Shown here one piece after another: positions 3,941-46,160 of a stretch of 60,045 nt of DNA. Numbering within the stretch: position 1 is the first letter of the stretch; each line of letters starts with the position of its first letter. Source of the stretch: a virus. Below the pieces are notes generated by a model. That model searched no databases, was not told the origin of the DNA, and was given only the letters and a program-made list of their open reading frames with translations. The DNA is taken from the IMG/VR virus record IMGVR_UViG_3300034196_000061, positions 1-60,045 of that record; one strand, given 5' to 3'. Position numbers and translations under genes: made by a program.

Positions 3941-4004
3941 TTAGAACACGTCCTGCGACTCCAAAGACTTAGCGGACCATTTCCAGCCCTTCGGAGAGTG
4001 ATAG
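3695..4004. repeat. Six-copy octamer cluster CTATCACT/AGTGATAG
   Basis: Copies lie at 3695-3702 (CTATCACT), 3761-3768 and 3770-3777 (AGTGATAG, 9 bp period), 3908-3915 and 3916-3923 (CTATCACT, back to back), and 3997-4004 (AGTGATAG, inside the helicase 3' end). About one copy of any octamer is expected in the whole window. The mix of tandem and opposed copies beside a primase/helicase operon suggests initiator or repressor binding sites. Confidence 0.65.
3848..3862. promoter_or_regulatory. Degenerate GTATAC pair
   Basis: GTATAC-GGA-ATATAC with the 9 bp period of the dispersed operator. It is 250 bp upstream of the leftward start at 3597, further than at the other sites, so its role is less certain. 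Confidence 0.35.
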
Positions 4005-5254
4005 CGGGGCCGCCCGTCGAGCAAAGGTCCTTTGGTCCAGCCCAGGCGGCGGAGGATTTTGACGATCCGGTTGCTGTCGGCGCGGGTGTGTCGCGACAGT
4101 TCAAGCCCGAGGCATTCGGCGCCGATGGCCTGGATCGTGACCTGGGTTGACGGCGGGATGTCGCTAAGCCATTGGTTGATAACGCTTTCCCAGGCGTCTT
4201 CGCAAAACCGGCCCGCCTGTTGGGGCGCGATGTGCTCGGCTTCGAACTCGCGGGTTGGATACCAGTGGTCGCCGAGCCGGTATCGGGCGAGCGCCTCGGC
4301 GAAGAGTTGTTCCCGGTCGCGGCGGAGCCCGGAGAGGTCGATGATGCCGCACAGGATTGGCCAGTACCGCCGCGCGCCCGTCTCGTCGTGCAGGTACGAC
4401 TCTTTGTTGGTGGTTCCAACGAACACGCATTGTCGTGGGGCGATGATATCTCGCCGGGCATATGGCGGCCGGTAGCGTTCTTCCCGGCGAGACAGAAAGC
4501 TCTTCAGAGATTCCGAATCCGCGTTGCTCATGGCCGACAATTCGGAAACTTCGATCAGCAGCTTGCCGGAAAGGTGTTGACTCAAATCCTTTCCACCATG
4601 TCGAATGTCCGGAAGAGAGTCAGAGAAATAGTCTCGTGTTGCCAGGATTTCGCACAGCGTGCTTTTGGCCGCTCCCTGCGGCCCCTCAATCACCACCATG
4701 TTGTCAACTTTGCACCCCGGCTCATATATCCGCGCCACCATCGACAGGAGGAACATCTTGCCGACGCCGCGCGAATACGGCGTCGAGACAACGCCGGCAT
4801 AGGTTGAAAGCCAATCGTCAAGCCGCGGAACGCCGTCCCACACCAACCCGTCGAGCCAATCACGAACCGGGTGAAACTTGTTGGCCGCGGCATGGACTTC
4901 CACGGCTTGGTGGCAAACGTCCTGGCCGATCGTCGGCATGGCGTTGATTTGGAGCCATTCTTGAATGGCCCCGATGTCGATATCTGTAATCGGCCGGATG
5001 ACAAAGGGTTTGGGCTCAAAGCGTGCGCGGTACGGAAGGGGCCGCAGGAGCACGGTGCAGCGCTGCATGTCGTCAAAGCCTATGCGGCCTTTGAGAGACG
5101 GAGCGGAACGTAAAGCAATCAGCACGTTTGAAAGTGAGTTGCGGGGACCTTCGCGTGTGGTTGCCAGGAGCGAGGTCCAGTGCACCGGCCCGGCGGGTAC
5201 TGCGGTGTTGTCCACCACGAGCTCCGGGCGGGGCCATTCCGGTTCGTCGGTCAT
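3941..5254 (-). CDS. VapE-type primase-helicase ATPase (SF3-like)
   Basis: A 437-residue protein from the ATG at 5254 (an upstream GTG at 5293 would add 13 residues and overlap the primase stop). A Walker A loop GPQGAAKST lies in the middle, followed by a Walker B-like LLIEVSEL and the C-terminal signature FVGTTNKESYLHDETGARR with YWPI. These mark virulence-associated E (VapE) family helicases, which unwind DNA for phage and satellite replication. The primase-polymerase gene sits immediately upstream, as is usual for this pair. The C-terminal 60 residues form a winged-helix-like tail that could recognise the adjacent octamer cluster (inference). Confidence 0.9.
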   Translation of the reverse strand: MTDEPEWPRPELVVDNTAVPAGPVHWTSLLATTREGPRNSLSNVLIALRSAPSLKGRIGFDDMQRCTVLLRPLPYRARFEPKPFVIRPITDIDIGAIQEWLQINAMPTIGQDVCHQAVEVHAAANKFHPVRDWLDGLVWDGVPRLDDWLSTYAGVVSTPYSRGVGKMFLLSMVARIYEPGCKVDNMVVIEGPQGAAKSTLCEILATRDYFSDSLPDIRHGGKDLSQHLSGKLLIEVSELSAMSNADSESLKSFLSRREERYRPPYARRDIIAPRQCVFVGTTNKESYLHDETGARRYWPILCGIIDLSGLRRDREQLFAEALARYRLGDHWYPTREFEAEHIAPQQAGRFCEDAWESVINQWLSDIPPSTQVTIQAIGAECLGLELSRHTRADSNRIVKILRRLGWTKGPLLDGRPRYHSPKGWKWSAKSLESQDVF

Positions 5255-5276
5255 GTGCGGAGGGGAAGCTGGAGGA

Positions 5277-6089
5277 TCAGCCGCGGCGGGCACCCCGGAA
5301 GGCCGAAGAGATGGTTGCCCGGGACTCGGGGATCGACATGCCGGCTTGCGCTCCGGCGCGCATCAGGCCGTCGCAGGCTTCCGACTCTGAGAGCTCCCCG
5401 GCGTTGACGCGGAGAGCAAGTATAAAGGCCCACCTGTTTAGACATGCGTTTCGTGTCCCTTGTTGAGCGCGAGAAATCGCAGTCAGTGCTCGGGACATTA
5501 TTAAGTCCGCGGCAGGGCTGGACTTCGTTTTGTCGCGGTCAACATAGGGCTGTGCTGGTGGTGGCGCGAGAAGAGACGACAACCAAGGCGGGCAGTCTGG
5601 TGGGGATACTTCCCAGGGGGGTGTCAACCAGATGTAGGGCTTGCGGGTCCTGTGGTGACTAGATGGCGGAATTGTGACGGTAAGGCGACCGCGCCTGGGG
5701 TCAATGCCGGGGAGGGGGCAACCGGCATCCCCCCGGATCACTTCCCCGTTATAACGAAAGAAAATAACCAATCCACCGCCGCCCGTTCTAATTGTTGGAC
5801 GTCGCGGTAGAATACCATGTATACTCACGAGCGAAGCCATGGCGGCAATACCGTCGTGTTTATGCTCGCCACCCGGCACGTCCAAATCCAAAGCAAAGAT
5901 GCCGGACCCCTCCATCCGCACACGCCAGTTGCAGCCCGGGAATTCTCGGCTCCATTTACCGAGTATATCAAGATCAGATGTACTCTGATCGTTAGCGCCT
6001 ATGAAGCAAGAGGCGCGAGAACCCGAGTAGCAAGGGTGGATTTTCCATCCAAGTAGCGCGAGATTTTCAACGCAGGTCGGAAGCTTCAT
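5277..6089 (-). CDS. Bifunctional DNA primase/polymerase (prim-pol) domain protein
   Basis: A 270-residue protein from the ATG at 6089 (MKLPTCVENL), preceded by a GGGGGAAAG ribosome binding site. The prim-pol catalytic pattern is visible: ALDLDVPGG carries the metal-binding DxD, with a later TIRTGGGG and a PGIDPR segment resembling the family's 'GVDVR' step. A proline-rich linker follows, then a helical C-terminal part (SRAQQGTRNACLNRWAFILA) typical of the helicase-contacting tail. It should make primers or short DNA for the VapE helicase encoded next. The gene is divergent from the block beginning at 6156. Confidence 0.88.
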   Translation of the reverse strand: MKLPTCVENLALLGWKIHPCYSGSRASCFIGANDQSTSDLDILGKWSREFPGCNWRVRMEGSGIFALDLDVPGGEHKHDGIAAMASLVSIHGILPRRPTIRTGGGGLVIFFRYNGEVIRGDAGCPLPGIDPRRGRLTVTIPPSSHHRTRKPYIWLTPPWEVSPPDCPPWLSSLLAPPPAQPYVDRDKTKSSPAADLIMSRALTAISRAQQGTRNACLNRWAFILALRVNAGELSESEACDGLMRAGAQAGMSIPESRATISSAFRGARRG

Positions 6090-6155
6090 TATTCTTTCCC
6101 CCAAAGAGGAAATCTGTTTAGTGTAAAACCACCGTGAGGATTAAGGAGAAAGACG

Positions 6156-8443: not shown

Positions 8444-8649
8444 CGAACCACAATCCCGCCACGACCATCCGAACGGCAGATGATCTCCGCAAGCGAATGC
8501 TCGCAGGGGAAATCCTGCACTCGTTCATCCCGCCCGGCAGTCGTCGCCACGCATGGCGGCTAGAGCCGTCGCAGGCGCACGTTGCACATGAGGCCGTTGC
8601 CGATCTGCGGCGCGAGGTTCCGACCACAACCACCTTGGAAGTGGCATGA
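8440..8649 (+). CDS. Small hypothetical protein
   Basis: A 69-residue protein whose ATG at 8440 overlaps the preceding stop (ATGA). It is basic in the middle (SRRHAWRLEPSQAHVAHE) and polar elsewhere. It is the last small gene before the large terminase; the 58-bp gap that follows is C-rich with no clear signal. Confidence 0.65.
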   Translation: MTNHNPATTIRTADDLRKRMLAGEILHSFIPPGSRRHAWRLEPSQAHVAHEAVADLRREVPTTTTLEVA

Positions 8650-8707
8650 CAAAAACACCGACCCCCTCCCCGCAGACCACCGTTTCCCGGAAATAGACCC
8701 ATAGCCC

Positions 8708-10399
8708 ATGGCGCTTGACCTTCCAGACACCGTTGAAGAGAGCCTAGAATTCTATCGGCACGTCGAGAAAGACGGTCCGCCAGCGGTCGCGCAGCTTGGG
8801 CGAAAGGACCTGTTTTACCTTTTGGCCATCCTGCTAAGACGCCCGGATGTCATGCACCCGTGGCTGTTCAAGAGATGCCGCGAGGTTCAAGAAAGTCCAG
8901 ACAACCACATCGACCTATGGAGCCGCGACCACTACAAGAGCTCGATAATTACGTTTGCTTTGACAATACAGAACATCCTCACCAACCCCGAGATCACGGT
9001 TGGGATTTTCTCGCACACCAGACCGATAGCAAAATCCTTTTTGGTCCAGATCAAGCGGGAGTTCGAAGATAACGAGCACCTGAAGGCTCTTTACCCCGAC
9101 GTGCTTTGGGCAAGCCCCATGAAGGACAGCCCCCGGTGGTCGGATGATATCGGGATCATCGTCAGGCGCGCGACGAACCCCAAGGAAAGCACGGTAGAAG
9201 CCTGGGGTCTGGTAGACGGGCAACCGACCGGAAAGCACTATTCGCACATGATTTACGATGACGTGGTGACGCGGGAGAGTGTCAGCACGCCGGAACAGGT
9301 CCAGAAGACGACAGCAGCTTTCGAGTTGAGCGACAACCTGGGAACCCAGGAAGGCGTGCGCCGGATCATCGGCACGAGATACAGTCTGCACGACACGTAC
9401 GCGACCATTCTCGAAAGACAGGTGGCCGAGCCGAGGATTCACCCGGCAACGCACAACGGAAGATTCAACGGCAAGCCCGTGTTCTTCAGCCAAGAGCTTT
9501 GGGAACGAAAATTAAAGGTGCAGTCAAAGAAAATCCTGGCGGCCCAGCTTCTGCAAAATCCGATGGCCGACGAAGCCGCGACGTTCCAAGCGGCATGGCT
9601 TAAAAGCTACGAGGTTCGGCCGAGGCTCTTGAACGTCTACATCATGTGCGATCCCAGCCGGGGTAGGACATCCGGGTCCGACAACACGGCGATGGCGGTG
9701 GTCGGCGTCGGCAGCGGCGGCAGCAAGTTCCTTCTCGACGGCGCCTGTCACCGCATGACGCTCAGTCAGCGGTGGACGACTCTGCGGGAGCTCCGGCGCA
9801 AATGGTCCGCCAAGCCGGGCGTGCAGCATATCGAAGTCGGGTATGAACGCTTTGGCGCGCAGTCCGATGACGAGTATTTCCAAGAGCAAATGGCGAAAAA
9901 CAAAGACTGGTTTCCGATCGAGGAACTTGCATGGCCGCGCGACGGCACAGAAAGCAAGAGAGAGCGTATCGAGCGCTTGGAGCCGGATTTCAGAAATGGG
10001 CGGTTCTATCTTCCGCTCCCGGTTCTGCGGGAAGGGAAGCCGTCAACATGGAAAATAAACAACGAGACTGAGGACGATCCCGACAACCCAGGGCGAAAGC
10101 TGCAAGGGATGAATTGGGGAAATCTGGAATATCGCAACGTGACCGGTGCAACCCGGGCGCAGATCGAAGCGATAGAGGGTGGATCGTCAGACCTGATAGC
10201 TCGGGCGATCAAGGTCATGGACGAAGAGCGCCACGTCTACGATCTGACTGTATGGTTCATGGACGAATACATACAGTTTCCATTTGGTCGTTGGCGGGAC
10301 ATGCTTGACGCTGTAAGCAGGATTTACGACATGGAACCACGACCGCCGCAGCTTACATCCAAAAGCGCAAGCGAGCCTCCGCTATTCTTTGACAGCTAA
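8708..10399 (+). CDS. terL: Terminase large subunit
   Basis: A 563-residue packaging motor, full length for the family. An atypical Walker A (residues 72-79, SRDHYKSS) is followed by a Walker B-like MIYDDVV at 181-187. The C-terminal RNase H-like nuclease begins with the metal-binding Asp in MCDPSRGR (about 315), with later acidic residues (EVGYERFG region). It cuts concatemers and drives DNA into the prohead through the portal encoded at 16032. The deviant ATPase loop is shared by terminases of many podoviruses that deliver internal proteins. Confidence 0.93.
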   Translation: MALDLPDTVEESLEFYRHVEKDGPPAVAQLGRKDLFYLLAILLRRPDVMHPWLFKRCREVQESPDNHIDLWSRDHYKSSIITFALTIQNILTNPEITVGIFSHTRPIAKSFLVQIKREFEDNEHLKALYPDVLWASPMKDSPRWSDDIGIIVRRATNPKESTVEAWGLVDGQPTGKHYSHMIYDDVVTRESVSTPEQVQKTTAAFELSDNLGTQEGVRRIIGTRYSLHDTYATILERQVAEPRIHPATHNGRFNGKPVFFSQELWERKLKVQSKKILAAQLLQNPMADEAATFQAAWLKSYEVRPRLLNVYIMCDPSRGRTSGSDNTAMAVVGVGSGGSKFLLDGACHRMTLSQRWTTLRELRRKWSAKPGVQHIEVGYERFGAQSDDEYFQEQMAKNKDWFPIEELAWPRDGTESKRERIERLEPDFRNGRFYLPLPVLREGKPSTWKINNETEDDPDNPGRKLQGMNWGNLEYRNVTGATRAQIEAIEGGSSDLIARAIKVMDEERHVYDLTVWFMDEYIQFPFGRWRDMLDAVSRIYDMEPRPPQLTSKSASEPPLFFDS

Positions 10400-15658: not shown

Positions 15659-16032
15659 TGGAAATAGATGTCCAATCCGAAGGCCCAACCGCGATGGCCG
15701 ACGAAGATGCCTGCCGGGCGGTCGGGGAGGATTTGCAGCAGGCGTACCCCGGATATCCATGGATGGTCGGGTGCGACCACACCGCCGGGCGACTCGTGAT
15801 TGACATTGCCCTGAAAAAGCCGTTCGGACTCGAAAACTACGCGTACGCTCTGCATCTCGCGACGGTGTTTGGCCCCGGAGGACAGGCCCGGGTTCGGCGA
15901 GCCGGCGGGGAGCTCTTGGAGCGCTTCGGGCTGCGCCGCGGGCACGCCGCACCAGACCATCGGCAGGAAGCCGCTTCCAACGGCCTGGACATTCACGAAG
16001 CGCTGTATCCCAAGAAAGGTCACACCACCTGA
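15655..16032 (+). CDS. Hypothetical protein upstream of portal
   Basis: A 125-residue protein from ATG 15655 (a second Met follows directly). It shows a mixed alpha/beta fold: DACRAVGEDLQQAYPGYPWM, RLVIDIALKKPFGLENYAYA, HLATVFGPGGQARVRRAGG. This pattern is conserved in podoviruses immediately before the portal gene, as I recall, with unknown role. It overlaps the portal start by one base. Confidence 0.7.
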   Translation: MMEIDVQSEGPTAMADEDACRAVGEDLQQAYPGYPWMVGCDHTAGRLVIDIALKKPFGLENYAYALHLATVFGPGGQARVRRAGGELLERFGLRRGHAAPDHRQEAASNGLDIHEALYPKKGHTT

Positions 16033-18623
16033 TGCCGAGCTCCCGGCTCACGCCGCCATCAAACCAAGACGGCCGACACGGGCTGTCGTCGGCCGCCGCC
16101 TCGCGGTTTGACGCAGACGACGGCGGCGAAGAGCCCGGGATTCTCGACGCGGACACCGCGCGGAAGCTGGCAACCGACTGTTACGAGGCGTCAACCGATT
16201 GGCTCAACTCCGGGCGCCGGGCGGCTTGGAACAACAGCCTGAGAGCTTTTCAGAGCCTCCATCCGAGCGGCAGCAAGTACAACAGCCGCGAGTACGGATA
16301 TCGCAGCACCATGTACCGCCCGATCTCCAGGATGATAATCCGCCGGGCGGAGATGCAGACGGCGCAGGCTTTTTTTTCGAATGAGGACGTTGTTTCTATC
16401 AGGGCGCAAGACGACAACGACAAGAATCAGTTGGCAAGCGCCGAAATCAACAAGGCGCTCCTGCAATACAGACTGACGCATTCGATTCCCTGGTTCCTGA
16501 CGCTGATCGGTGCGCGGCAGGATTGCGAGATCATGGGGATTTGCTGTGCGAAAGCTTATTGGAAATACGAAGAGCAAGTAAGCCACACCGAAGATCGGCC
16601 GATTCTCGGTCCGGACGGTCTACCGCAGGCAGCGGAAGACGGCACGCTCCTGACGGAGCAAGTGGACATTATGAAGGCGATCCACGACAAGCCGGTGGTT
16701 GACCTCATAAGCCCCGAGAACATCCGATTTGAGCCGGGTTGCGACTGGCGCGATCCGGTTGGGTCAAGCCCGTACATCATTGAGTTAATGCCGATGTACA
16801 TAGGCGACGTGTTGACAAAGATGGAAAGCGGCGAGTGGCATTCTGTCTCTGAGTCAGCGCTGCGCGCGGCATCCGATCGAGACGACGACCAGACCCGCCG
16901 AAGCCGAGAAAGCGGACGTGTCCCGGGGAAGGACAAGGATTCATGGAAGCCAAAGGATTATGACATTTGCTGGGTCCGCGCCAACATCATCAAATGGAAT
17001 GGCCAGGACTGGCACTATTATACGCTGGCGGCATCGGGAGAAATCTTGACCGACCCTGTTCCGCTTCGTGATGTCTACTTGCACGGCGAGCGGCCGTATG
17101 TCATCGGCTTTACGATGATGGAGACGCATAAGACATACCCGAGCGGAAAGCTGGAAATGGTCCGCGATCTTCAGCGCGCCGCAAATGACATATGGAATAT
17201 GCGGTACGACAACTTGAAACTCAATTTGAACCCGCGGCAATTCATTCGGACAGGTGTTGCGACTGAGATTTCCGACGTGCGCAGCTTCGCGCCCGGAAAA
17301 GTCGTTGTCGTGAACACCAAACCGTCTGAGGACATGCGGAACGCGATCCAGTGGGATCGCCCGCCACCGATGGACGAAGCCGCTGCCTATCAGGAGCAGG
17401 ACCGCATAAATCTCGACACCGACCAACTGACAGGAGCGTTCACCAACTCGTCTGTCCAGGCATCGCAGCTTCAGCAGCAGAGCGCGACCGGAATGCACCT
17501 GATGTCCGGCGAGGCTTCCGGACTCAACGAATACGAGCTCCGGTGTTTCGCCGAAACATTCGTGGAAAAGCTTGTCAGGCTCTTGATGAAGCTTGAACAG
17601 GCGTACGAGGTTGACCCTGTTATTTTGGCCATTGCCGGGAAGAACAGCCAAATCTATCAGAAATACGGCATCAACGAGATCACCGACGCGCTGATTGAGG
17701 GGGAGCTTACCACGAAAGTCAACGTCGGCGTTGGCGCCAGCAACCCACAGATGCGCTTGAAAAACTTCATAGCTGGCGCCGACATCCTTGGCAAAATCTT
17801 TGGCCCAGCAGCGGCGACCGGTGCGAATTTTCCCGAAGTTGCGAAAGAGGTTTTCGGAATGCTCGGGTATTCCGACGGTTCCCGTTTTTTCAATCCGGAA
17901 TTCGATCCCCGCGTGGAGATTTTGCAAAAGCAACTCGACAAGGCCAAGGGCGCCGGAGGGAAGGGCGGCCCGACCGACCAGGGCAAGATACAGTCAGCGC
18001 AAATCCAGGCCCAGGCGCATCTTCAGGCCGCCCAAACAAAGGCACAGGCCGACGTGCAGATGACGGCGATGGAAGCGCAAGCGAAGCAGCAACAGATGTC
18101 CGTGGACCAATGGAAAACGATGTTCAAGGGGGCCAGCGACAACGCGATGGTGGAGGCGCAGCTTGCGCACTCAGGACAGCAGCAAAGGATAGATCGCGGG
18201 CATGACGCGGCGATGCAACACAACGAGATAGTGCATCAAGCCGCGATCAAGGGGGTGGGGGACGATAACGGGAACGTATCGGCGCGAACCCCCACACAGG
18301 GGGTTGTGGCTGGCCCTCGGGCTACACAACCCCCTGCTTCTGAAGATTCGTCAATGTCGTCAGTCGTGCAAATTCTTGCCGCTCTTACGAGCGGGATACA
18401 GCAAGGAAATGCACAGTTGGCAGCAGCAATCACCGAAAACACGCGGCAGATGACTCAGGCTCTAGCTGCCGTCGTGCGGGAGACGAATGCTCCCGTCATG
18501 CAGTCGATGGCCCACCTTGCGCAGTCGCACGCCAATATGGCGTCGGCATTGAGCGCGAGGCGCCGCTTGATTCGCGGGCCGGACGGGAGAGCGGAGGGTG
18601 TGGAGATCGTTGACACGAGATGA
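16032..18623 (+). CDS. Portal protein
   Basis: An 863-residue head vertex protein. Residues 40-100 contain the typical opening (WLNSGRRAAWNNSLRAFQS, YRSTMYRPISRMIIRRAEMQ), followed by the core with ISPENIRFEPGCDW and DLQRAANDIWNMRYDN. The last 230 residues form a long Gln/Ala-rich helical barrel (QAHLQAAQTKAQADVQMTAM), as in large podovirus portals. It anchors terminase during packaging and the tail afterwards. Length, position and internal signatures all agree. Confidence 0.88.
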   Translation: MPSSRLTPPSNQDGRHGLSSAAASRFDADDGGEEPGILDADTARKLATDCYEASTDWLNSGRRAAWNNSLRAFQSLHPSGSKYNSREYGYRSTMYRPISRMIIRRAEMQTAQAFFSNEDVVSIRAQDDNDKNQLASAEINKALLQYRLTHSIPWFLTLIGARQDCEIMGICCAKAYWKYEEQVSHTEDRPILGPDGLPQAAEDGTLLTEQVDIMKAIHDKPVVDLISPENIRFEPGCDWRDPVGSSPYIIELMPMYIGDVLTKMESGEWHSVSESALRAASDRDDDQTRRSRESGRVPGKDKDSWKPKDYDICWVRANIIKWNGQDWHYYTLAASGEILTDPVPLRDVYLHGERPYVIGFTMMETHKTYPSGKLEMVRDLQRAANDIWNMRYDNLKLNLNPRQFIRTGVATEISDVRSFAPGKVVVVNTKPSEDMRNAIQWDRPPPMDEAAAYQEQDRINLDTDQLTGAFTNSSVQASQLQQQSATGMHLMSGEASGLNEYELRCFAETFVEKLVRLLMKLEQAYEVDPVILAIAGKNSQIYQKYGINEITDALIEGELTTKVNVGVGASNPQMRLKNFIAGADILGKIFGPAAATGANFPEVAKEVFGMLGYSDGSRFFNPEFDPRVEILQKQLDKAKGAGGKGGPTDQGKIQSAQIQAQAHLQAAQTKAQADVQMTAMEAQAKQQQMSVDQWKTMFKGASDNAMVEAQLAHSGQQQRIDRGHDAAMQHNEIVHQAAIKGVGDDNGNVSARTPTQGVVAGPRATQPPASEDSSMSSVVQILAALTSGIQQGNAQLAAAITENTRQMTQALAAVVRETNAPVMQSMAHLAQSHANMASALSARRRLIRGPDGRAEGVEIVDTR

Positions 18624-22695: not shown

Positions 22696-23682
22696 ATGGC
22701 CGGACAACTCTGGTCGGTGAACACGCTCGGCGGGTTTATGTACTCGCTTGAGCTTTCCGATCTTCTTCGAACCGCTGTGCAACCTCTTTGTAAGTATCGC
22801 CAGTTTTGCGATGCAAAAGATTTCACTGACAAAGGGCTTCACAAGGGCCAGTTGTTCACTTGGAACGTTTACAACGACGTTGCAACCGGCGGGACTTCAC
22901 TCACCGAGACAACGACAATCCCGCTCACCAACTACACGATTGCTCAAGGCACCGGAACGGTATTCGAATACGGAAATAGTGTTCCGTATACCGAGTTGCT
23001 GGATAACTTGAGCAAGCATCCCGTTCAAGAGATCATCAACAAAGTTCTCAAGAACGATTGCAAAAAAGCGCTCGACGATCAGGCGTGGTCGCAGTTTTGG
23101 GCAACGCCCCTGAAGGCTGTTGGAACTGGTGGACAGGCCAACACCGTCATTGCTTTGACCACGAACGGCACAGCAACCGGCACCAACTCGTCGGCGCTGG
23201 GAAAGGCGGCTCTGAAGCTACTTGTCGATCTTATGAAAGAGCGCAACATCCCAGCCTATATGGGCGACGAATACTTTGGGATTGCTTGGCCGACGACTTG
23301 GCGACCTCTGAAGAATGATCTGGAATCTGTATACCAATACAGAGACGAAGGTTTCCAGATGATTTACAACGGGGAGATCGGGAAGTTTGAAGGTGTTCGT
23401 TTCATCGAGCAAACGAACGTGTTCAAGGGGCGGTATACCAGCGGCGCCTATCAGGTTCCAGGCAGCTTCACGGCCTGGACTTCCGGACTTTCCGACAATG
23501 CGTTTTTTTTCGGTGAAGATACTGTTGCCGAAGCCATCGTTGTCCCGGAGGAAATGCGCGGCATGATCCCGCAGGACTTTGGCCGGAGCAAAGGTATTGC
23601 GTGGTACTATCTTGGAGGATTCGCGTTGACGCAGACCCAGGCGTCTCAGGCGCGTATCGTCCACTGGACCTCGGCGGCATAG
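22696..23682 (+). CDS. Major capsid protein (N4 gp56-like family)
   Basis: A 328-residue HK97-fold coat protein. The signature end FFFGEDTVAEAIVVPEEMRG, then GRSKGIAWYYLGGF, matches the N4 gp56 family of major capsid proteins as I recall it. An N-terminal arm is followed by FTWNVYNDVATGG and a spine-helix region (EIINKVLKNDCKKALDDQAW). Length is normal, and no scaffold domain is fused. Confidence 0.88.
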   Translation: MAGQLWSVNTLGGFMYSLELSDLLRTAVQPLCKYRQFCDAKDFTDKGLHKGQLFTWNVYNDVATGGTSLTETTTIPLTNYTIAQGTGTVFEYGNSVPYTELLDNLSKHPVQEIINKVLKNDCKKALDDQAWSQFWATPLKAVGTGGQANTVIALTTNGTATGTNSSALGKAALKLLVDLMKERNIPAYMGDEYFGIAWPTTWRPLKNDLESVYQYRDEGFQMIYNGEIGKFEGVRFIEQTNVFKGRYTSGAYQVPGSFTAWTSGLSDNAFFFGEDTVAEAIVVPEEMRGMIPQDFGRSKGIAWYYLGGFALTQTQASQARIVHWTSAA

Positions 23683-32262: not shown

Positions 32263-32718
32263 ATGAACGATATGCAGGTTGGCCAAGCGATCATCATGCG
32301 GCTGGCGACGGAGAACATCCCGGCGCTGTGGCCGCAACTTGAGCCGCTGATTGTGCGCTCTCTGTTCGATACCCCGACCACGACAGCGGAAGACGTGTTC
32401 CGGATGCTCATGGCATACCGGGCCGATGCCTGGGTGCAGATTCAGCCCGAAACCACCACCGTACAGGCTCTGTCGATTACCGATTACGAAAGCACTCCGC
32501 AGGGTGTTTGGCTGAGAGTTTGGCTGTGCGCTGTTGCTGATGGATACCGACTGAAAACCCAGGAGTTTCGCAGCGCAATCGAACGCTGGAAAACAAGGCA
32601 GCGCTGCCGCGGGCTTTCGCTTGTTGGCCGGCATGGTTGGGTAAAGCTGTTCCCCGACGCAAAAGTTGAGGGGGTGATGATGCGAACCACCGATGCCTAC
32701 GTGGAGGATTCGCCATGA
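32263..32718 (+). CDS. Small internal virion protein, possibly GNAT-like
   Basis: A 151-residue protein. The final part, SAIERWKTRQRCRGLSLVGR, then HGWVKLFPDAK, follows the C-terminal pattern of GNAT-fold proteins found at this place in podoviruses, analogous to T7 gp13. Catalysis is uncertain. It overlaps the next gene by 4 bp. Confidence 0.66.
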   Translation: MNDMQVGQAIIMRLATENIPALWPQLEPLIVRSLFDTPTTTAEDVFRMLMAYRADAWVQIQPETTTVQALSITDYESTPQGVWLRVWLCAVADGYRLKTQEFRSAIERWKTRQRCRGLSLVGRHGWVKLFPDAKVEGVMMRTTDAYVEDSP

Positions 32719-34106
32719 GTAGCGGCGGCGGAGGGAGTAGCAGTCAGACATCAACTGTAACCCAAACCATACCTCAGTTCGAACAGGACTTCGCGCAAGC
32801 GAACCAAAATCTTGCGAACGATCTCGGCTCAACACCGTATCCGGTGTACCAGGGGCAGCTTCAGGCGCCTTTGACATCATTGCAGCAACAGGCTCTGAAA
32901 ACCGTAGGAGACGCCGCCAACAGCTACCGGCCTGATTTGCAAAAAGCAAACAACACGCTGGACAATTCCTCGTATCTTTTGCGCCAGTTCGATAATTTGT
33001 CGGGGCAGACAAGCGCGAACGCAAGCAATGACCCGGTAGCGATGGGGCAGGCTTACATGCCGAGCCTTATGGGCGGCGCGCAAAACTCTATCACCATGGG
33101 ATCAAATTACGCTCCGGGGCTCATGTCGGCCGCAAGCCAAGCCGGCAACAACACCGCTTCGCTCGGCGACGCAGGAGCGTTGGAACAAACCGGCGCGGCT
33201 CTTGGAACGCGCGGCGCCCAAAACATCGCACTCGACCCGAGCGATACGGCGACGGTCCAACGGTTTATGAATCCGTACGTGCAAGCGGCTCTCGATCCGC
33301 AGATACAGCAACTCAATTTGCAGTACGGAAAGCAGGCGCAGGATTTGGCGTCGCAAGCGACCTCGGCCGGCGCCTTCGGCGACGCTCGGCTTGGTGTTAG
33401 TCAGAGCCTCAACAACTATTACAACAACCTCGCGACCTCCGGAGTTGAAGCGCAGGGCTACAACACCGCGTACAACAACGCGATGAGCACGATTGGAAAT
33501 CAGCAGCAGCTTGGCCTCGGGGAAATGAACGGTGCCAGTTCCGCATTCAATCAAGCGGGAACACTTCGCCAGGGGCAACAGGGGTTGCAGCTTCAGGGCG
33601 CACAGATCGGCAACCAAATCCTCACCGGACAACAGGCAAATCAGTTGTCAGCTACAGGATTGCAGAACACCATCTTGACCGGTCAGCAGCAAGCCGGATT
33701 CAACCAAATGGCCGCGGCGCAGGCGGCGCAAAAGAACCTGATGGAAGAACAGGCCGCGCAACTCGCGCGCTCGCAGCAGTACCAATCTCTCGGAACGTCG
33801 GCGCAAACCCTCGGGTTGAATGCGTCGAATGCCAAGTGGGCGGCCGGGCAGGCGGAACAGCAGCAGCAGCAGACGGCCGATAACCTCGCTTATCAGCAAT
33901 ATATGAACCAAGTGAACTGGCCATATCAGCAACTCAACGTGCGCGAGTCTGCGCTCAGCAACAGCCCATACACGATGCAGAACGCCGTCACCCTGCCTGG
34001 GACCTCCAATTCTGCGACGAACCTTGGCGCGTTCGCCAGCCTGTTGGGGCTGTCGGGCGCGAGCTCCGGATGGGGCAGCAGCACCGTTCCGCAAGCGATA
34101 AAGTGA
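32715..34106 (+). CDS. Gln/Ala-rich virion protein
   Basis: A 463-residue protein starting with a Ser/Gly run, then TVTQTIPQFEQDFAQANQNL and long Gln/Asn/Ala-rich helices. The body resembles helical internal virion proteins of podoviruses (long NxxQxxxL repeats). It is four bases from the transglycosylase-like gene; probably part of the ejection assembly. Confidence 0.7.
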   Translation: MSSGGGGSSSQTSTVTQTIPQFEQDFAQANQNLANDLGSTPYPVYQGQLQAPLTSLQQQALKTVGDAANSYRPDLQKANNTLDNSSYLLRQFDNLSGQTSANASNDPVAMGQAYMPSLMGGAQNSITMGSNYAPGLMSAASQAGNNTASLGDAGALEQTGAALGTRGAQNIALDPSDTATVQRFMNPYVQAALDPQIQQLNLQYGKQAQDLASQATSAGAFGDARLGVSQSLNNYYNNLATSGVEAQGYNTAYNNAMSTIGNQQQLGLGEMNGASSAFNQAGTLRQGQQGLQLQGAQIGNQILTGQQANQLSATGLQNTILTGQQQAGFNQMAAAQAAQKNLMEEQAAQLARSQQYQSLGTSAQTLGLNASNAKWAAGQAEQQQQQTADNLAYQQYMNQVNWPYQQLNVRESALSNSPYTMQNAVTLPGTSNSATNLGAFASLLGLSGASSGWGSSTVPQAIK

Positions 34107-36534: not shown

Positions 36535-38886
36535 ATGTCTGGCGCCATTGCCGTAGACCCTTGGGCCGGCAGACTGGACCCCGCGTTTGACGATCCGATT
36601 GCGCCACCCGCCGCCGCCCGGCCGCCTGCTTCGCCTGTCGCTCCGGTTGCGCCGGCCGCGCCCGCCGCGGACCCGTACGCCGGCCGTCTCGGGGATGCGA
36701 TTGAAGCCCCCCTTGTGCCGCGCGCACCACCCCGCACCGACGCCGGAGGCATGGGCCGGAACATCGCCGCTGGCGCCATCGAAGGCGCTGGCGGAATGCT
36801 CAATATCATTTCGGACCCGTTCGGCAACCTGATCGGCCGCCCGGTAGTCCGCGCCGGCATGTTTGCTCACGATGCGCTGGCCCCGTACACGGGCGCGACG
36901 CGCTTCACGGACGAAGATCGGCGGGCCATGCTTGACGATACAGTGCCCCAACCGGGCACGCGCATTGCCAACCGCGTCGGGGCGTGGCTTGGCGCCCCCT
37001 CGCCAGAGTCTGTCGCGGTCACGACGCCCAGCGAGGGGTGGGCACGCGCAGCAGCCGCGGGCGCTCTCGGCGGAATTCCCTTTGGTTTCGGGACCGCTGC
37101 AATCGGCGCGGCGGGCGCCCCGCTCAGTCAGGAAGCCGCTCAACGCGCCGGGGCCGCGGCGCCGGAGTGGGCAAAACCGTACGTGGAGCCGGCCGCAGCG
37201 GGGGCGGCGGCTCTCGCGCTGCCCGTCGCCGGCCGGACGGCAGCGGGCGGCCTCGGAATGGCCGCCAGGGCGGCGCTTGTGCCGCGCGACGCCGAGCTTC
37301 AGCGGCTGTTGCAGTACGCCCAGCAACAGGACATCCCGGCGACAGTCGGCGGCGTGACGCAAAGCCCGTTCGCCAAGACGATGGACTCCGTGCTCCGGTC
37401 AGTCCCGGGATCGGGGTACGCCGGCCTCGACGCCGAGATGCAGAGCGCCATCAACCGCGCGGCCAATCGCACGATGGGCCTTGATGCGCAGACGCTGCGC
37501 TTGGCCAACTTGCCAGATGACAAGGTGACGGGCGCGCATTTCAATCTTGCGCACAGGCTCTCAGCGGGAGAAATGCAGAGGATCGAATCGACGTATCCGC
37601 TGCGGCTTGATCCGCAGTTGGGCGCGGACCTCCGCGCGATCATCGGCCGCTTCAACCCGAGCACGATTGCGCAACACGAAGCGACGGCGATTGAAAGTAG
37701 CCTCACGCAATTTCTGGACACCGCACTCGAAAACCAGCGGCGGAGCGGAATTGCAGGCGAAATCCCGGGGACCGTGTACGGAAACTTCGTGCACACGGGG
37801 GCGCCGATCGAAAGCGCGATTGGTTCCACGTCGCCGAACATGCGCCGCGCCAACACGGAAATTCTGCGGGCGCTACAGGACGCCTACACGCGATCACTTC
37901 CGGCGAACGAAGCCGGAGCGTACCACGCCGCGCGGGTGAACTATTCGAACAAGGAAGCGCTGTCGCCGATTGCCGGCCGGGCCGACGTGCCGGGCGGAGC
38001 TCACCCGAGCACGGGCGACATCGTTCCCGAACAGCTACGCGGCATCGTCAACCGGGCGCGCGGCGGGCCGGAAGTCGCCTACCTCAACCCAGGCGACGAT
38101 CGTTTGAATGATTTGGCCCAACTGACTCAGCGGCTGAAGCAACCCCGGAGCTCCAACACCAGCGAGCGCAGTTTTGCCCGCCGGACGCTTGAGGGCATCC
38201 CCCATATCGTTACGGCTCTTGGGGCCGCGGCGATGGAGCGCGGGGCGATGCCGGAGTTCATGCACCCAACGACAGTCGGGCCGACGCTACTCGGGGCGGG
38301 TGCGCTCGGCTTCCTGGCACGCGGGCTCGGGGCCGGACTGCGCACCCCGGCGCTGCCCGAAGGCACCTTCAGCCAGCGGCTTGGGCGCGCCGTCACGGAT
38401 AGCCTGCCGGCCGCGGTTGCCGGCGCGGCCGGCGGCGCCGAGACGCCCACGATCAACCCGGCGACCGGGCTTCCGCAGTACAACCTCGCCGACGCGCAGG
38501 CGGCCAATGCCGCATCGGGCCACCCGCTTGTTTCTGGATTACTCGCGTCTGGCGCGAAATATAGCGATTGGGTTCGCGCTCACCGTGCAGGGATCATCCG
38601 CGAGTTCGGCGGACAAGGATTCCAACGGATGATGCAACTAGGTGCTTCACTTTCGCGTGGGAACACTATATTACGTTCCATGGTTGACTTGTTCAACTCA
38701 CGGTCGGGGCTTCCCCCGATGTTGTCTCATCTCGGGGTGCGATCTCCCGACGATCTGATACTTGCGGCGGTCCGAAAATCGGGCCTCGCGAACGTGCTGT
38801 CTGGACCTTCAATGCCAAATGGCCGTGTCAGTAATTGGGCATTGAAGCAGGTTGCTAAGGCTATTGGCGGGGATACCGGAACCTGA
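36535..38886 (+). CDS. Large internal virion (ejection) protein
   Basis: A 783-residue protein starting right after the preceding stop. The front has Pro/Ala repeats with DPYAGRL and DPWAGRL motifs; the middle is helical with Gly/Ala-rich, possibly membrane-active segments (GALGGIPFGFGTAAIGAAGA). The last part (about 650-783) is more globular (GGQGFQRMMQLGASLSRGN). No catalytic motif seen. Position and composition fit an ejected channel protein like those of T7-type and P22-type podoviruses. Confidence 0.72.
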   Translation: MSGAIAVDPWAGRLDPAFDDPIAPPAAARPPASPVAPVAPAAPAADPYAGRLGDAIEAPLVPRAPPRTDAGGMGRNIAAGAIEGAGGMLNIISDPFGNLIGRPVVRAGMFAHDALAPYTGATRFTDEDRRAMLDDTVPQPGTRIANRVGAWLGAPSPESVAVTTPSEGWARAAAAGALGGIPFGFGTAAIGAAGAPLSQEAAQRAGAAAPEWAKPYVEPAAAGAAALALPVAGRTAAGGLGMAARAALVPRDAELQRLLQYAQQQDIPATVGGVTQSPFAKTMDSVLRSVPGSGYAGLDAEMQSAINRAANRTMGLDAQTLRLANLPDDKVTGAHFNLAHRLSAGEMQRIESTYPLRLDPQLGADLRAIIGRFNPSTIAQHEATAIESSLTQFLDTALENQRRSGIAGEIPGTVYGNFVHTGAPIESAIGSTSPNMRRANTEILRALQDAYTRSLPANEAGAYHAARVNYSNKEALSPIAGRADVPGGAHPSTGDIVPEQLRGIVNRARGGPEVAYLNPGDDRLNDLAQLTQRLKQPRSSNTSERSFARRTLEGIPHIVTALGAAAMERGAMPEFMHPTTVGPTLLGAGALGFLARGLGAGLRTPALPEGTFSQRLGRAVTDSLPAAVAGAAGGAETPTINPATGLPQYNLADAQAANAASGHPLVSGLLASGAKYSDWVRAHRAGIIREFGGQGFQRMMQLGASLSRGNTILRSMVDLFNSRSGLPPMLSHLGVRSPDDLILAAVRKSGLANVLSGPSMPNGRVSNWALKQVAKAIGGDTGT

Positions 38887-39425: not shown

Positions 39426-39971
39426 ATGACGCAATTTGAGCGCTGCGTTTCTTTCACCCTCGCGGAAGAGGGCGACGAGTACACCGACGACCCGCGCGAT
39501 CCGGGCGGACCGACCCGATGGGGGATCACCCTGGCGGACCTCCGCCGCTGGCGTGAGGGGCACGCTCACCCCGACGAGCCGGTGACGGTGACGGCGGGGG
39601 ACGTGCGCGACATGGGCCAACAGGAAGCCCGTGAGATATACAGGGCGAAGTATTGGAACGTGGTGCAGGGCGACTATCTTTCGTACGGACTTGACCTGTG
39701 CGTCTTTGACTACGGCGTGAACAGCGGTACCGTTCGCAGCGTGAAGCTATTGCAGAGTTTTTTGCGCACGAATGTTGACGGTGTTCTTGGCCCAAAGACG
39801 CTGGCGGCGGTGCGCGGCGTCAACGATCTCCCCGGGCTGATCGGCCGGTTTCAGGACGCCCGACAAGCGTTTCTGGAGTCGCTGAGCACGTTCGACCACT
39901 TCGGCCGCGGGTGGACGGCTCGAGTCGCGCGCATCCGAGTCGCCGCCCTGGCCATGGCGACGAGGGGCTGA
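39426..39971 (+). CDS. Endolysin, GH108 lysozyme with PG_binding_3 domain
   Basis: A 181-residue muramidase. The N-terminus (FTLAEEGDEYTDDPRDPGG, TRWGIT) carries the catalytic Glu motif of glycoside hydrolase family 108, normally 'EGGYxNDPxDPGGATxxGI'. From about 95 (CVFDYGVNSGTVRSVKLLQ, DGVLGPKTLAAV) the PG_binding_3 peptidoglycan-binding repeat follows. No signal peptide is visible, so export relies on the holin. Confidence 0.9.
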   Translation: MTQFERCVSFTLAEEGDEYTDDPRDPGGPTRWGITLADLRRWREGHAHPDEPVTVTAGDVRDMGQQEAREIYRAKYWNVVQGDYLSYGLDLCVFDYGVNSGTVRSVKLLQSFLRTNVDGVLGPKTLAAVRGVNDLPGLIGRFQDARQAFLESLSTFDHFGRGWTARVARIRVAALAMATRG

Positions 39972-40252
39972 AGCAAAAAAAGTTATCCACATTTGCCTGT
40001 TTTATGGGCAAAGTTATCCACGTTATCCACAGGAAATCGCGGAATCTTGAATCAGTGGGGTGTGATCTTTTGTACGCACGCCAAAAGTGCCAGTTTTTGG
40101 GATATCAATAGGTTACGGGACTTATCCCGTGATCTATTGTAGGGCATTCTAATAGAAGAACTAATAGCTTTCTTCCTTCTGTCCGGCAGGGGCTTGTCTC
40201 CTACAAAAGATCACACTCCCGCCGATCTCCCGGATGTGCCAGCCTTGGTCGC
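39972..40252. other. Candidate plasmid-type replication origin
   Basis: No gene seen. DnaA boxes: TTATCCACA at 39983-39991, TTATCCACG at 40014-40022 and TTATCCACA at 40023-40031. Further on lie palindromes CCAAAA...TTTTGG (40081-40100) and ACGGGA-CTTA-TCCCGT (40115-40130). A 15-bp perfect inverted repeat encloses them (40060-40074 / 40202-40216). The region is A+T-rich and ends at the repA start. All are typical of a DnaA-assisted plasmid origin with a rep control region. Confidence 0.78.
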
Positions 40253-41176
40253 ATGGGAAAGGTGCATCGGCTGATAGCGGAGGAAGGGCGGCAAGGAGCA
40301 ATGCGCTTCGATGTGCCGCGCACGGTCATTGAAGCCGCTTCGGCTTACATGGCCAATGAGGAAGGCGGCATTGAATGCCTCTACTCGGGTTGGTGCCAAG
40401 CGGCGCTGCCGCATCGGCGCATCCCTGACGGCGACGACTGGAAGGTAACGAGCGAGTTTGTAACGCTGGTCGTTGAGAGTGGCGTTCGCCTGGATCAAGC
40501 TAACAACATGGTCCATGTCGGCGTGCCGTTCGGATCGAAAGCCCGACTGATTTTGCTCTACCTGCAAGCGGAGGCTTTGCGCACGGACAACCGAGAAGTT
40601 GAGCTTGGGAAAAGTCTTCGTTCCTGGCTTGCGAAGCTTGGAATCCCGGTTGGCGGAAAGAACGTGCGCGAGGTTCGCGAACAATCGGACCGGCTGGCCC
40701 GGTGCCGGATTTCCTTCCACTTCCAGCGCGGCCGGAAGCGCGCCCTCGTCAATCAGAACATCATGGATACCGCGATGTTCGAAGAGGACGAAGGCGACGG
40801 CGGCGTTGTCTCGACATTTCTGGACCGGGCTTGCCTATCGGAAGCATTCTTTGCGGAGCTCAAGCGGCACCCTGTCCCGCTGGAAGAGTCGGCCATCCGG
40901 GCGCTGTCCAACAACTCTCAGGGGCTCGACATCTATGCGTGGCTTGCCTACCGACTGCACTCGCTGAAGGCCGCGACGCCGATCAATTGGCCCGCCCTCA
41001 AGCCGCAATTTGGCGCTGGTGTTGGGCGCATGGACAATTTCCGCCGGCTGTTCCTCCCCAACCTGCATCTGGCTCTGGCGGTCTATCCGGACGCCAAGGT
41101 TGACCTCACAGACACCGGCCTGTTGCTGCACCCGTCCCGGCCGCCCGTCGCGCCGCGCGTGTTCGCCGTCGCCTGA
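40253..41176 (+). CDS. repA: Plasmid replication initiator RepA (RepA_C family)
   Basis: A 307-residue protein. The sequence YSGWCQAALPHRRIPDGDDW, then GSKARLILLYLQAEALRT, ELGKSLRSWLAKLGIPVGGK, LSNNSQGLDIYAWLAYRLH and final LLLHPSRPPVAPR reproduces the Pfam RepA_C family of plasmid initiators, which bind iterons and start replication. Such initiators are plasmid hallmarks and not normal in lytic podoviruses. The three DnaA boxes and palindromes immediately upstream make a complete rep/ori module. Translated from ATG 40253; no strong ribosome binding site is visible. Confidence 0.88.
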   Translation: MGKVHRLIAEEGRQGAMRFDVPRTVIEAASAYMANEEGGIECLYSGWCQAALPHRRIPDGDDWKVTSEFVTLVVESGVRLDQANNMVHVGVPFGSKARLILLYLQAEALRTDNREVELGKSLRSWLAKLGIPVGGKNVREVREQSDRLARCRISFHFQRGRKRALVNQNIMDTAMFEEDEGDGGVVSTFLDRACLSEAFFAELKRHPVPLEESAIRALSNNSQGLDIYAWLAYRLHSLKAATPINWPALKPQFGAGVGRMDNFRRLFLPNLHLALAVYPDAKVDLTDTGLLLHPSRPPVAPRVFAVA

Positions 41177-41183
41177 CGACGCC

Positions 41184-41600
41184 ATGCCCTGGGAATCGCT
41201 GGAAATTCGGGGGCTGTATCGACTCGCCGGGCGGGACGTGGTTCCGGAACCCAGCTTCATGGAGTGGGCGGCTTGGCGAGGGCACGCGGATTGCACGGTT
41301 CGGCGCACCAATGTTTCCAAGCCGGGAATGAGCCATCCAACGTTGATCTCAACCGTGTTCATCGGGGTTGATCTTGGGTGCAAAGACGGTGAGCTCCCCC
41401 TGGTGTTCGAAACCATGATCTTTGTCGGCGGTCGGGCAAGTGGCTCACAATGGCGCCGCAGCACCTGGGAAGACGCCGAAGCCTGCCACGACGACGCGGT
41501 TGCCATGGCCACTGCCGCGGCCATGGCCACGGGCTCAGAGGGCGTGGAAGTCCACGATGTGCCTAGCCCGAGCTCAGGGCAGAGCGGGCCAACTGCGTAA
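41184..41600 (+). CDS. Conserved phage/prophage protein of unknown function
   Basis: A 138-residue protein from ATG 41184, 7 bp after repA. The pattern DVVPEPSFMEWAAWRGHADC, VSKPGMSHPTLISTVFIGVD and LPLVFETMIFVGG recurs in many prophages I know, always unnamed. The Cys and Glu residues and short length suggest a small adaptor-type protein. Its 3' end overlaps the convergent gene at 41563. Confidence 0.72.
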   Translation: MPWESLEIRGLYRLAGRDVVPEPSFMEWAAWRGHADCTVRRTNVSKPGMSHPTLISTVFIGVDLGCKDGELPLVFETMIFVGGRASGSQWRRSTWEDAEACHDDAVAMATAAAMATGSEGVEVHDVPSPSSGQSGPTA

Positions 41601-44528: not shown

Positions 44529-45578
44529 TCACGGCGCGGATGCTTCTTGGCCGGTCGCCGCCTGGGTGTACTCAGGGTTGCCCAGGTCGCCGTCTGGTCC
44601 GTTGATCTCGCCCGTCTCGTGATCGTGCGCCGGCTCCCCCTGTACCTTATTCTCTGTGGGCGCGGGCGCGGGCGCGGGCTCGGGCGCGGCGTCGGCGATG
44701 TCTGCCGCGGCGCGGATTTCAGCCTCCCGGGTCCGCTCGGCCCGGAGCACCTTGACCACCAACTCGTTGCGCCCGGCGGCTTCGAAGTCGCGCAGCATCG
44801 ACTCGGCGCGGGCCGCCAGTTTGGCCAGTTCGTCAACCGCCCGCATTTTTGTTACGACCGCCAAGTATTTGTCGGCCCGCTGAGAGAGTTCGTCCACGAG
44901 ATCGGCGTCCGGGATGGCGTCCGGCATCGACGCGCCGTTCTTGCTCGGCGCGGCCGGGCCGGCGGGCGGTATGATCCCGTCCTCCGGATAGTCCATGACC
45001 TCTTCCGTCGTCAGGAGCCCCTTCAGAACGTCGGGATAGGCATCCCTCAAGGCAAAGCCCCGGGCGCGCTGTTGCAGCATCCGCCGCGGCGAAGTCACCC
45101 AGGGCGTTGGCTTTCCGTCGTACCCCGTCTTCCCCCACAGCTTGGCCATCTTGGCGTCGCCGACCGAAAATTCAGCACGGACGGGGCTCGGGCGGCCCTT
45201 TCGGTGGGTTTCACAGACTGCGCGGAAGTGATCTCCGGTGCCCTCAAACCACTCGTTGATATAAAGGCAAATCCCGCTGGCGTTTACCAGACCGGGAACA
45301 GCATCACCCCAAACGGTTGGGCGTCCATTTGTCACCATTATGTTTGACAGGCTCTGCATTGGAGTAAGCCCGACCTCGGCACCAAACTGCACGGCCAATA
45401 TGATGTCGGCTTTGCGCGGCTTCTTGGTGTTTTTGTCCCAAAAGGAGCTCGGAACCATTGAGGATTCGATGACGTAATCCGCAAAATGTTCAAGCTCTGC
45501 CCATGTCGTCAGACGAAGCGCGGTGACTCTCGGTTCGTATTTCGCGACAGCAGTTTCCGTCTTTTCTGTATCCGCCAC
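44529..45578 (-). CDS. recT: RecT-family single-strand annealing recombinase
   Basis: A 349-residue protein. ADIILAVQFGAEVGLTPMQS, then LSNIMVTNGRPTVWGDAVPG, and the later TSPRRMLQQRARGFALRDAY with LLTTEEVMDY are the RecT-family blocks. It anneals single strands during phage recombination and concatemer formation. The Pro/Ala/Asp-rich C-terminus is long. It lies in an operon with the Gp157-like gene, while the VRR-NUC nuclease is divergent. Confidence 0.88.
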   Translation of the reverse strand: MADTEKTETAVAKYEPRVTALRLTTWAELEHFADYVIESSMVPSSFWDKNTKKPRKADIILAVQFGAEVGLTPMQSLSNIMVTNGRPTVWGDAVPGLVNASGICLYINEWFEGTGDHFRAVCETHRKGRPSPVRAEFSVGDAKMAKLWGKTGYDGKPTPWVTSPRRMLQQRARGFALRDAYPDVLKGLLTTEEVMDYPEDGIIPPAGPAAPSKNGASMPDAIPDADLVDELSQRADKYLAVVTKMRAVDELAKLAARAESMLRDFEAAGRNELVVKVLRAERTREAEIRAAADIADAAPEPAPAPAPTENKVQGEPAHDHETGEINGPDGDLGNPEYTQAATGQEASAP

Positions 45579-45590
45579 TTTCGATTCCTT

Positions 45591-46160
45591 CTACTTGTCT
45601 CGCACCTTTACGATTTCTTCCCCGGGCTCTTTTCCAGCGCCCGGCACAACTTCTCCCTTTCTCATGGCTTCGATGATCGCAGCTTTGGAAATTGTGGTGA
45701 CTGTTACGCGGTATTGAGCCGGTATCAGAGACTCATCAAGGATGACCATCCGAAGTCTCGGGGGCTCAATAGTTATGGAGCAATCGGCGAACGCTGCCTT
45801 TGACTGGCCGATCTCCCGGAGGCAGTCAGCCGCCGCGCGCTTCAGCATGTCGGCGCGCTTCAGATAGCGATCCCGACGCTGCAAGGTGCGCTCCGCGATC
45901 CCATCCGCCGCCGCGGCGGTCGCTTTTGCCGCAAGGTGCGCCCGCATGACTTTGCCAAGAACTTCCCAGGCGTCGCACGTATCAGGATCGCCAGAAAGAA
46001 GATCGGCCAAATAGGATTCATCGTTCGCTAAGCACTGGTCCTCTTCTAACAAAGCGGTTCTTGCTTCAAGAAGAACCATCTTTGCTCTATACAATCGGTT
46101 TGCTAACCGGCTCGCGTCGGCTTCAATCGTCAGAGACTTTGGGAGTGTTCTTTCAGACAT
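45591..46160 (-). CDS. Siphovirus Gp157-like protein
   Basis: A 189-residue helical protein. The ordered helices at residues 20-120 (YRAKMVLLEARTALLEEDQC, DRYLKRADMLKRAAADC) and the ending IEPPRLRMVILDESLIPAQY with a valine-rich strand fit the Gp157 family (phage resistance or recombination accessory). It precedes recT by 12 bp. A perfect palindrome lies 16 bp before its start. Confidence 0.8.
   Translation of the reverse strand: MSERTLPKSLTIEADASRLANRLYRAKMVLLEARTALLEEDQCLANDESYLADLLSGDPDTCDAWEVLGKVMRAHLAAKATAAAADGIAERTLQRRDRYLKRADMLKRAAADCLREIGQSKAAFADCSITIEPPRLRMVILDESLIPAQYRVTVTTISKAAIIEAMRKGEVVPGAGKEPGEEIVKVRDK

What the first reader, a model, noticed from the sequence alone, without database searches (positions are those of the whole stretch)
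39972..41176. A plasmid RepA/DnaA origin module inside a podovirus-like genome: probable phage-plasmid
Seen: three DnaA boxes (TTATCCACA, TTATCCACG, TTATCCACA), nested palindromes inside a 15-bp perfect inverted repeat, and then a full-length RepA_C-family initiator. Known: RepA_C proteins start replication of low-copy plasmids from adjacent origins. Inference: no integrase was found, so the prophage is probably maintained as an extrachromosomal replicon.
Basis: partly seen in the sequence, partly recalled or inferred. Interest (0 to 1): 0.85.

Follow-up and report, generated by a model that had tools for sequence, protein, structure and literature searches.

The report
Plasmid replication origin in podovirus genome
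A short-tailed phage genome, probably infecting acetic-acid-type bacteria, carries a complete plasmid-type replication origin and its initiator gene, so its DNA could copy itself like a plasmid; such phage-plasmids are a known kind, but the plasmid lifestyle itself is not shown here.

Summary
Window 39983-41176 holds a complete RepA_C replicon. The protein passes Pfam RepA_C (E=7e-23) and is about 60% identical to RepA of Acetobacteraceae plasmids. The upstream 270 bp reproduces the oriV of those plasmids: DnaA boxes, two direct iterons, a conserved TTATCCCGTG before the second iteron, AT-rich CTAATAG repeats, and one inverted iteron before repA. The surrounding genome is a Xuquatrovirus-like podovirus, and repA sits cleanly between phage genes.

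"Phage-plasmid" is plausible but unproven. No integrase was found, but neither were ParA/ParB, a recognisable repressor or a toxin-antitoxin pair. A PrimPol/VapE replication module is present as well. RepA_C is absent from 43 capsid relatives, and the nearest cultured relatives appear virulent. Three other complete IMG/VR records with RepA_C do have ParA. In the same capsid lineage, one relative carries TrfA plus ParA/ParB and another carries a RepL-type protein, so plasmid initiators have been acquired repeatedly.

Verdict: a real plasmid-type origin in a phage; probable phage-plasmid, with use as a lytic origin the main rival.

The parts
39983..39991 (+). DnaA box TTATCCACA
   Evidence: exact consensus; Acetobacteraceae RepA plasmids carry 0-1 close DnaA box at -217 to -276
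40014..40022 (+). DnaA box TTATCCACG (1 mismatch)
40023..40031 (+). DnaA box TTATCCACA
   Evidence: exact consensus
40062..40074 (+). Direct iteron 1 GTGATCTTTTGTA (left arm of the 15-bp inverted repeat 40060-40074)
   Evidence: three copies of GTGATCTWTTGTA in the window, all here; same layout in plasmid origins
40122..40131 (+). Conserved origin motif TTATCCCGTG just before iteron 2
   Evidence: at most 2 mismatches in 11 of 15 RepA origins against 1.4 expected (maximum 5 in 200 trials)
40129..40141 (+). Direct iteron 2 GTGATCTATTGTA
40149..40167 (+). AT-rich CTAATAG repeats (CTAATAGAAGAACTAATAG), putative unwinding element
   Evidence: CTA(A/G)TAG at a matching place in 7 of the 11 Acetobacteraceae plasmid origins
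40202..40214 (-). Inverted iteron ahead of repA, probable autoregulatory operator
   Evidence: one inverted copy at about -50 to -85 in 10 of 11 Acetobacteraceae plasmid origins; pGOX2 has it at about -100
40253..41176 (+). repA, RepA_C-family replication initiator, 307 aa
   Evidence: PF04796 E=7.1e-23; 60.6% identity over 98% to Rhodovastum plasmid RepA; start conserved
39426..39971 (+). Endolysin (GH108), left flank of the replicon
   Evidence: PF05838, phrog_315; homolog in relative G001
41184..41600 (+). 138-aa phage gene starting 8 bp after repA, right flank
   Evidence: homologs in lineage phages G039, G038, G027
5277..6104 (-). Primase-polymerase (Prim-Pol), second replication module
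   Evidence: PF09250 E=2e-17
3941..5254 (-). VapE/D5-like helicase, second replication module
   Evidence: PF05272 E=3e-72; phrog_256 E=1e-101
44529..45578 (-). RecT-like annealing protein
   Evidence: phrog_561 E=6.5e-30
45591..46160 (-). Gp157 / Mu Gam-like protein
   Evidence: PF05565, phrog_253
8708..10399 (+). Terminase large subunit
   Evidence: phrog_38 E=1.4e-45
16032..18623 (+). Portal protein
   Evidence: phrog_1216 E=1e-30
22696..23682 (+). Major capsid protein
   Evidence: phrog_1357 E=1e-18; 43 IMG/VR relatives
32715..34106 (+). DNA ejection protein
   Evidence: phrog_4287 E=1.3e-8
36535..38886 (+). DNA ejection protein
   Evidence: phrog_26400 E=1.6e-14

Best explanation
A complete iteron-type plasmid replicon (oriV plus repA) of the Acetobacteraceae RepA_C kind lies inside a Xuquatrovirus-like podovirus genome. 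By analogy with studied iteron plasmids, RepA binds the direct iterons (40062, 40129) with host DnaA bound at 39983-40031, opens the AT-rich CTAATAG stretch and lets the host replisome load; RepA binding to the inverted iteron (40202) ahead of its own gene represses repA and sets copy number. The phage DNA would thus be able to replicate by theta mode as an episome (a phage-plasmid), with the PrimPol/VapE/RecT module serving lytic growth. Shown: gene family, origin architecture and its conservation, phage context. Inferred: binding, melting, autorepression, episomal persistence.
For: RepA_C E=7e-23. Best plasmid hits are all Acetobacteraceae RepA at 50-61% identity over full length. The tree puts the window RepA among the Acetobacteraceae plasmid RepAs, though that group's support is 85/96, below the program's starred level. 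Origin layout and TTATCCCGTG / CTAATAG elements are shared with those plasmids. repA is flanked within about 10 bp by phage genes that occur in relatives. No integrase. A separate PrimPol/VapE module. Three complete IMG/VR records carry RepA_C plus ParA. Capsid relative G039 carries TrfA, ParA and ParB, with TrfA's neighbours shared with G027/G038; G038 carries a RepL-type protein. RepA-type initiators with short upstream DNA replicate some mycobacterial prophages (PMC7157519).
Against: No ParA/ParB in the window, unlike the other RepA_C records. No recognisable repressor, toxin-antitoxin pair or lysogen. No plasmid record holds this phage's portal or capsid. Relatives with complete-looking ends (G009, G012) have no integrase and none of the plasmid initiators searched, and the Vibrio relatives are treated as virulent (PMC13230959). 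No copy-number or circularity data.
Confidence: 0.55

Rival explanations
1. A virulent phage captured the plasmid replicon as its lytic (early) replication origin: RepA/DnaA initiate theta replication soon after infection, possibly with the phage VapE helicase and PrimPol, and there is no stable plasmid state.
For: No partition, repressor or addiction genes; cultured relatives are isolated as plaque-forming podoviruses and the matching Vibrio species LS29 is described among virulent phages (PMC13230959, PMC11990801); no phage DNA polymerase was found among the genes scanned, so host replisome recruitment is needed; a Vibrio relative encodes an annotated replication initiation protein.
Against: An iteron/autorepressor architecture is built for copy-number control, which a lytic burst does not need. 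A separate PrimPol/VapE module is already present. repA lies beyond the late genes and not in the early operon.
Confidence: 0.3
2. Recent hitchhiker: the replicon was inserted by recombination with a plasmid and is functional but of no special use to the phage (for example it only matters for plasmid incompatibility or superinfection).
For: Unique to this record among 44 lineage records; nearby phage genes are unaffected.
Against: The ORF is intact, all origin elements are kept, GC3 is ordinary for the genome, and packing against both neighbours is tight. Other lineage members acquired plasmid initiators independently.
Confidence: 0.08
3. Assembly chimera joining a plasmid fragment to a phage contig.
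For: The record is a viral contig without end repeats; no second record carrying the same junctions was found.
Against: The module is bounded on both sides by phage genes with homologs in lineage phages, within 11 bp on the left and 8 bp on the right, which would need two exact joins; composition is unremarkable.
Confidence: 0.04

Closest known systems
Acetobacteraceae RepA_C plasmids (Rhodovastum RHOApc, Roseomonas p1318-5, Gluconobacter pGOX2)
   Same: Initiator family with about 60% identity; DnaA box, direct iterons, TTATCCCGTG, AT-rich repeats and inverted iteron in the same order in most of them
   Different: Those replicons are plasmids, several with ParA/ParB near repA; here the replicon sits in a phage genome with no partition genes and three clustered DnaA boxes
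Phage-plasmids (P1, N15, SSU5; extrachromosomal mycobacteriophages such as Miko)
   Same: Phage structural genes plus a plasmid initiator and origin, no integrase
   Different: No ParABS or repressor found; podovirus-like virion; lifestyle untested (comparison from general knowledge and PMC7157519)
Xuquatrovirus and relatives (PTXU04, Pondi, HelliStehle; Vibrio podovirus LS29)
   Same: Portal about 30%, capsid 48-52% identity, 50-60 kb podovirus genome (PMC11990801, PMC13230959)
   Different: RepA_C was not found in the phage collection apart from one unannotated 3.9-kb contig; these are plaque isolates
IMG/VR records G044, G046, G047 with RepA_C and ParA
   Same: RepA_C initiator in records classed as viral, with end repeats of 77-127 bp
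   Different: No match to the window's structural genes; ParA lies beside repA

Membership tests
RepA_C plasmid initiators (PF04796) | Match to the curated domain model over most of its length | tested here: met
   E=7.1e-23, profile 1-167 of 181, 82 bits against cut-off 26
RepA_C plasmid initiators (PF04796) | Adjacent origin with iterons and DnaA box in the family layout | tested here: met
RepA_C plasmid initiators (PF04796) | RepA binds the iterons and supports autonomous replication | not testable with these tools
   needs a mini-replicon assay
Phage-plasmid | Phage virion and packaging genes present | tested here: met
   terminase, portal, capsid, ejection proteins
Phage-plasmid | Plasmid replication initiator and origin present | tested here: met
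Phage-plasmid | Plasmid partition or other stable-maintenance genes (common, not universal) | tested here: not met
   no ParA at E<=0.01, no ParB match, no toxin-antitoxin match in the early region
Phage-plasmid | No integrase (replaced by the plasmid state) | tested here: met
   PF00589 not found in the record; no recombinase in the early-region scans
Phage-plasmid | Found as a circular extrachromosomal element in a host | tested here: inconclusive
   portal and capsid absent from 72,556 plasmids; capsid found in only one genome-collection contig, in a Halobacteriovorax bin, same length as an IMG/VR contig; window ends show no repeats
Xuquatrovirus-like podoviruses | Homologous terminase, portal and capsid in conserved order | tested here: met
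   portal and capsid to Pondi and Vibrio phage 1.232.O; terminase, portal and capsid to IMG/VR relatives

The most novel reading that the evidence does not exclude
A podovirus capsid lineage whose cultured distant members appear lytic has repeatedly acquired different plasmid replicons (RepA_C in the window, TrfA with ParA/ParB in G039, a RepL-type initiator with ParA in G038), so it shifts between lytic and phage-plasmid life by swapping the initiator.
Probability: 0.4. Interest if true: 0.65.

Novelty: new member of a known kind. Interest (0 to 1): 0.45.

Why it matters
It ties a well-defined plasmid replicon, with its iterons and a conserved origin core, to a podovirus lineage in which I found no published phage-plasmid, and it points to Acetobacteraceae as hosts. 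If the episomal state is real, the lineage offers a natural comparison of relatives with and without a plasmid origin, and of different initiators in the same kind of phage, which makes the origin of phage-plasmids testable. The ~270-bp origin plus repA is also a small, directly testable mini-replicon.

Tried and rejected
Hairpin origin: rejected, the inverted repeat is an iteron pair. Idea that similar-sized Acetobacteraceae plasmids (60.6 kb p1318-5, 60.8 kb RHOApf) are the same element: rejected, they carry no annotated phage structural genes. Joining the contig ends by terminal repeats or one reading frame: no repeats, and the end ORFs are out of frame. RepA close-relative scan of viral contigs with a single protein found nothing; an alignment query found four. 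One 'phage' hit, OR850969, is an unannotated 3.9-kb contig and not evidence of a phage RepA_C. AlphaFold of RepA alone: mean pLDDT 32, discarded. PDB sequence search gave only chance hits. Promoter/terminator scan: nothing above chance. Rfam: nothing. Tandem repeats: no parS-like array recognised by eye. The Herbaspirillum TrfA plasmid is annotated with conjugation genes and no phage structural genes, so it is not a phage-plasmid of this kind. Pfam RepL model did not ring in G038, but its ORF is 47% identical to annotated RepL.

Full report
What is there. The window is a whole IMG/VR virus record of 60,045 bases without end repeats. Its layout is a right-pointing late block (terminase 8.7 kb, portal 16 kb, capsid 22.7 kb, head/tail 27-29.7 kb, ejection proteins 32.7-38.9 kb, endolysin 39.4 kb) and a mostly left-pointing early block (41.6-60 kb and 0-6.1 kb) with an N6/N4 methyltransferase, RecT, Gp157, DUF932, a VapE/D5 helicase and a Prim-Pol. 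Between the endolysin and a 138-aa phage gene lies the module of the finding.

Observation. DnaA boxes at 39983, 40014 and 40023 and the 15-bp inverted repeat are real and beyond chance. The ORF at 40253-41176 is a RepA_C protein, E=7.1e-23, well above the curated cut-off, with no PHROG family.

What it is. tblastn finds 920 plasmids with a relative. The 40 best are all Acetobacteraceae RepA at 50-61% identity over nearly full length, then Azospirillum at about 45% and others at 30-35%. In a maximum-likelihood tree the window RepA falls among the Acetobacteraceae plasmid proteins, with incomplete support. The host is therefore probably of that family (inference); the VapE helicase agrees, its best plasmid hits being Komagataeibacter, Roseomonas and Gluconobacter.

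The origin. I compared the 600 bp upstream of repA with 11 Acetobacteraceae plasmids. Each has its own iteron sequence but nearly all share one layout: direct iterons near -240 to -170 and near -140 to -105, and one inverted copy usually near -50 to -85, just before repA. The window has direct copies at -191 and -124 and the inverted copy at -51. A core TTATCCCGTG directly before the second iteron occurs with at most two mismatches in 11 of 15 origins against 1.4 expected and a maximum of 5 in 200 Markov-resampled sets, and is followed by CTAATAG repeats. This is a member of a plasmid origin family and not a chance cluster.

Context and chimerism. The left flank (endolysin, 11 bp before the first DnaA box) has a homolog in relative G001. 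The right flank gene, 8 bp after repA, has homologs in lineage phages G039, G038 and G027. RepA GC3 is ordinary for the genome. A misassembly would need two exact joins; I put it at 4%.

Relatives. The capsid protein finds 43 IMG/VR records; the portal finds Vibrio podoviruses and Escherichia Xuquatrovirus phages. Among 44 records including the window, only the window has RepA_C, and only one distant record (G042) has a tyrosine integrase. Among the records with complete-looking ends, G009 and G012 have no ParA, TrfA, Rep_3, RPA or RepL. The Vibrio relative of 52,228 bp (isolate D68) corresponds to species LS29, discussed among virulent phages (PMC13230959). More distant relatives differ: G039 (capsid 59%) encodes TrfA, 39% identical to a Herbaspirillum plasmid TrfA, plus ParB and ParA, and the genes next to TrfA are shared with G027 and G038. 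G038 has in the corresponding region a RepL-type protein, 47% identical to a Salmonella plasmid RepL, and a ParA; G027 has an ORF in the matching place that I judge similar by eye only. The lineage has thus taken plasmid initiators more than once.

RepA_C in other viruses. An alignment query finds four further viral contigs; three with end repeats (G044, G046, G047) carry ParA as well, near repA, and none matches the window's structural genes. The window stands out by lacking ParA.

How it works. The best reading is an autoregulated iteron replicon that lets the phage DNA replicate as an episome; the rival is recruitment of the same replicon for lytic replication. The iteron/operator layout and a separate PrimPol/VapE module favour the first; the absence of partition, repressor and addiction genes favours the second. 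Most of the small early genes are unnamed, so unrecognised maintenance genes are possible.

Verdict. Observation confirmed; phage-plasmid label plausible, not shown. Phage-plasmid-like elements are already numerous in IMG/VR (4,395 in PMC13221032), so the kind is known; the podovirus lineage and its varied initiators are the interesting part.

Noticed in passing
G039 (IMGVR_UViG_3300046615_000768) 3233-4267 -, 7776-9514 - (locus L110): A capsid relative of the window carries an IncP-type TrfA initiator plus ParB/ParA and SSB, with TrfA's neighbours shared with other phages of the lineage: a strong phage-plasmid candidate.
   Followed up: yes
G038 (IMGVR_UViG_3300046660_000367) 35125-35760 + (locus L112 1125-1760): RepL-type replication protein beside an SSB-like gene in a 98-kb phage with end repeats and a ParA; 47% identical to a Salmonella small-plasmid RepL.
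   Followed up: partly
L137, L139, L140 (records G044, G046, G047): Other IMG/VR viral contigs with RepA_C and ParA close together and end repeats of 77-127 bp; likely further phage-plasmids without match to the window's structural genes.
   Followed up: partly
window 3941-6104 -: Prim-Pol and VapE-like helicase as two overlapping genes, best plasmid relatives in Komagataeibacter; PF05272 was found in none of the 25 lineage records searched besides the window.
   Followed up: partly
window 12289-15224 +: Two genes between terminase and portal resemble polyvalent proteins: one has an LPD23 domain, the other a weak ADP-ribosyltransferase-like match below cut-off; function unknown.
   Followed up: no
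window 25339-26937 +: Gene conserved across the lineage next to the head genes; its N-terminal part resembles class I SAM methyltransferases.
   Followed up: no
window 20520-20792 +: 60/120-bp tandem repeat inside a 716-aa virion-region gene.
   Followed up: no
GenBank OR850969 (L106): Unannotated 3.9-kb 'Salmonella phage' contig carrying a RepA_C gene fragment; probably plasmid carry-over.
   Followed up: partly
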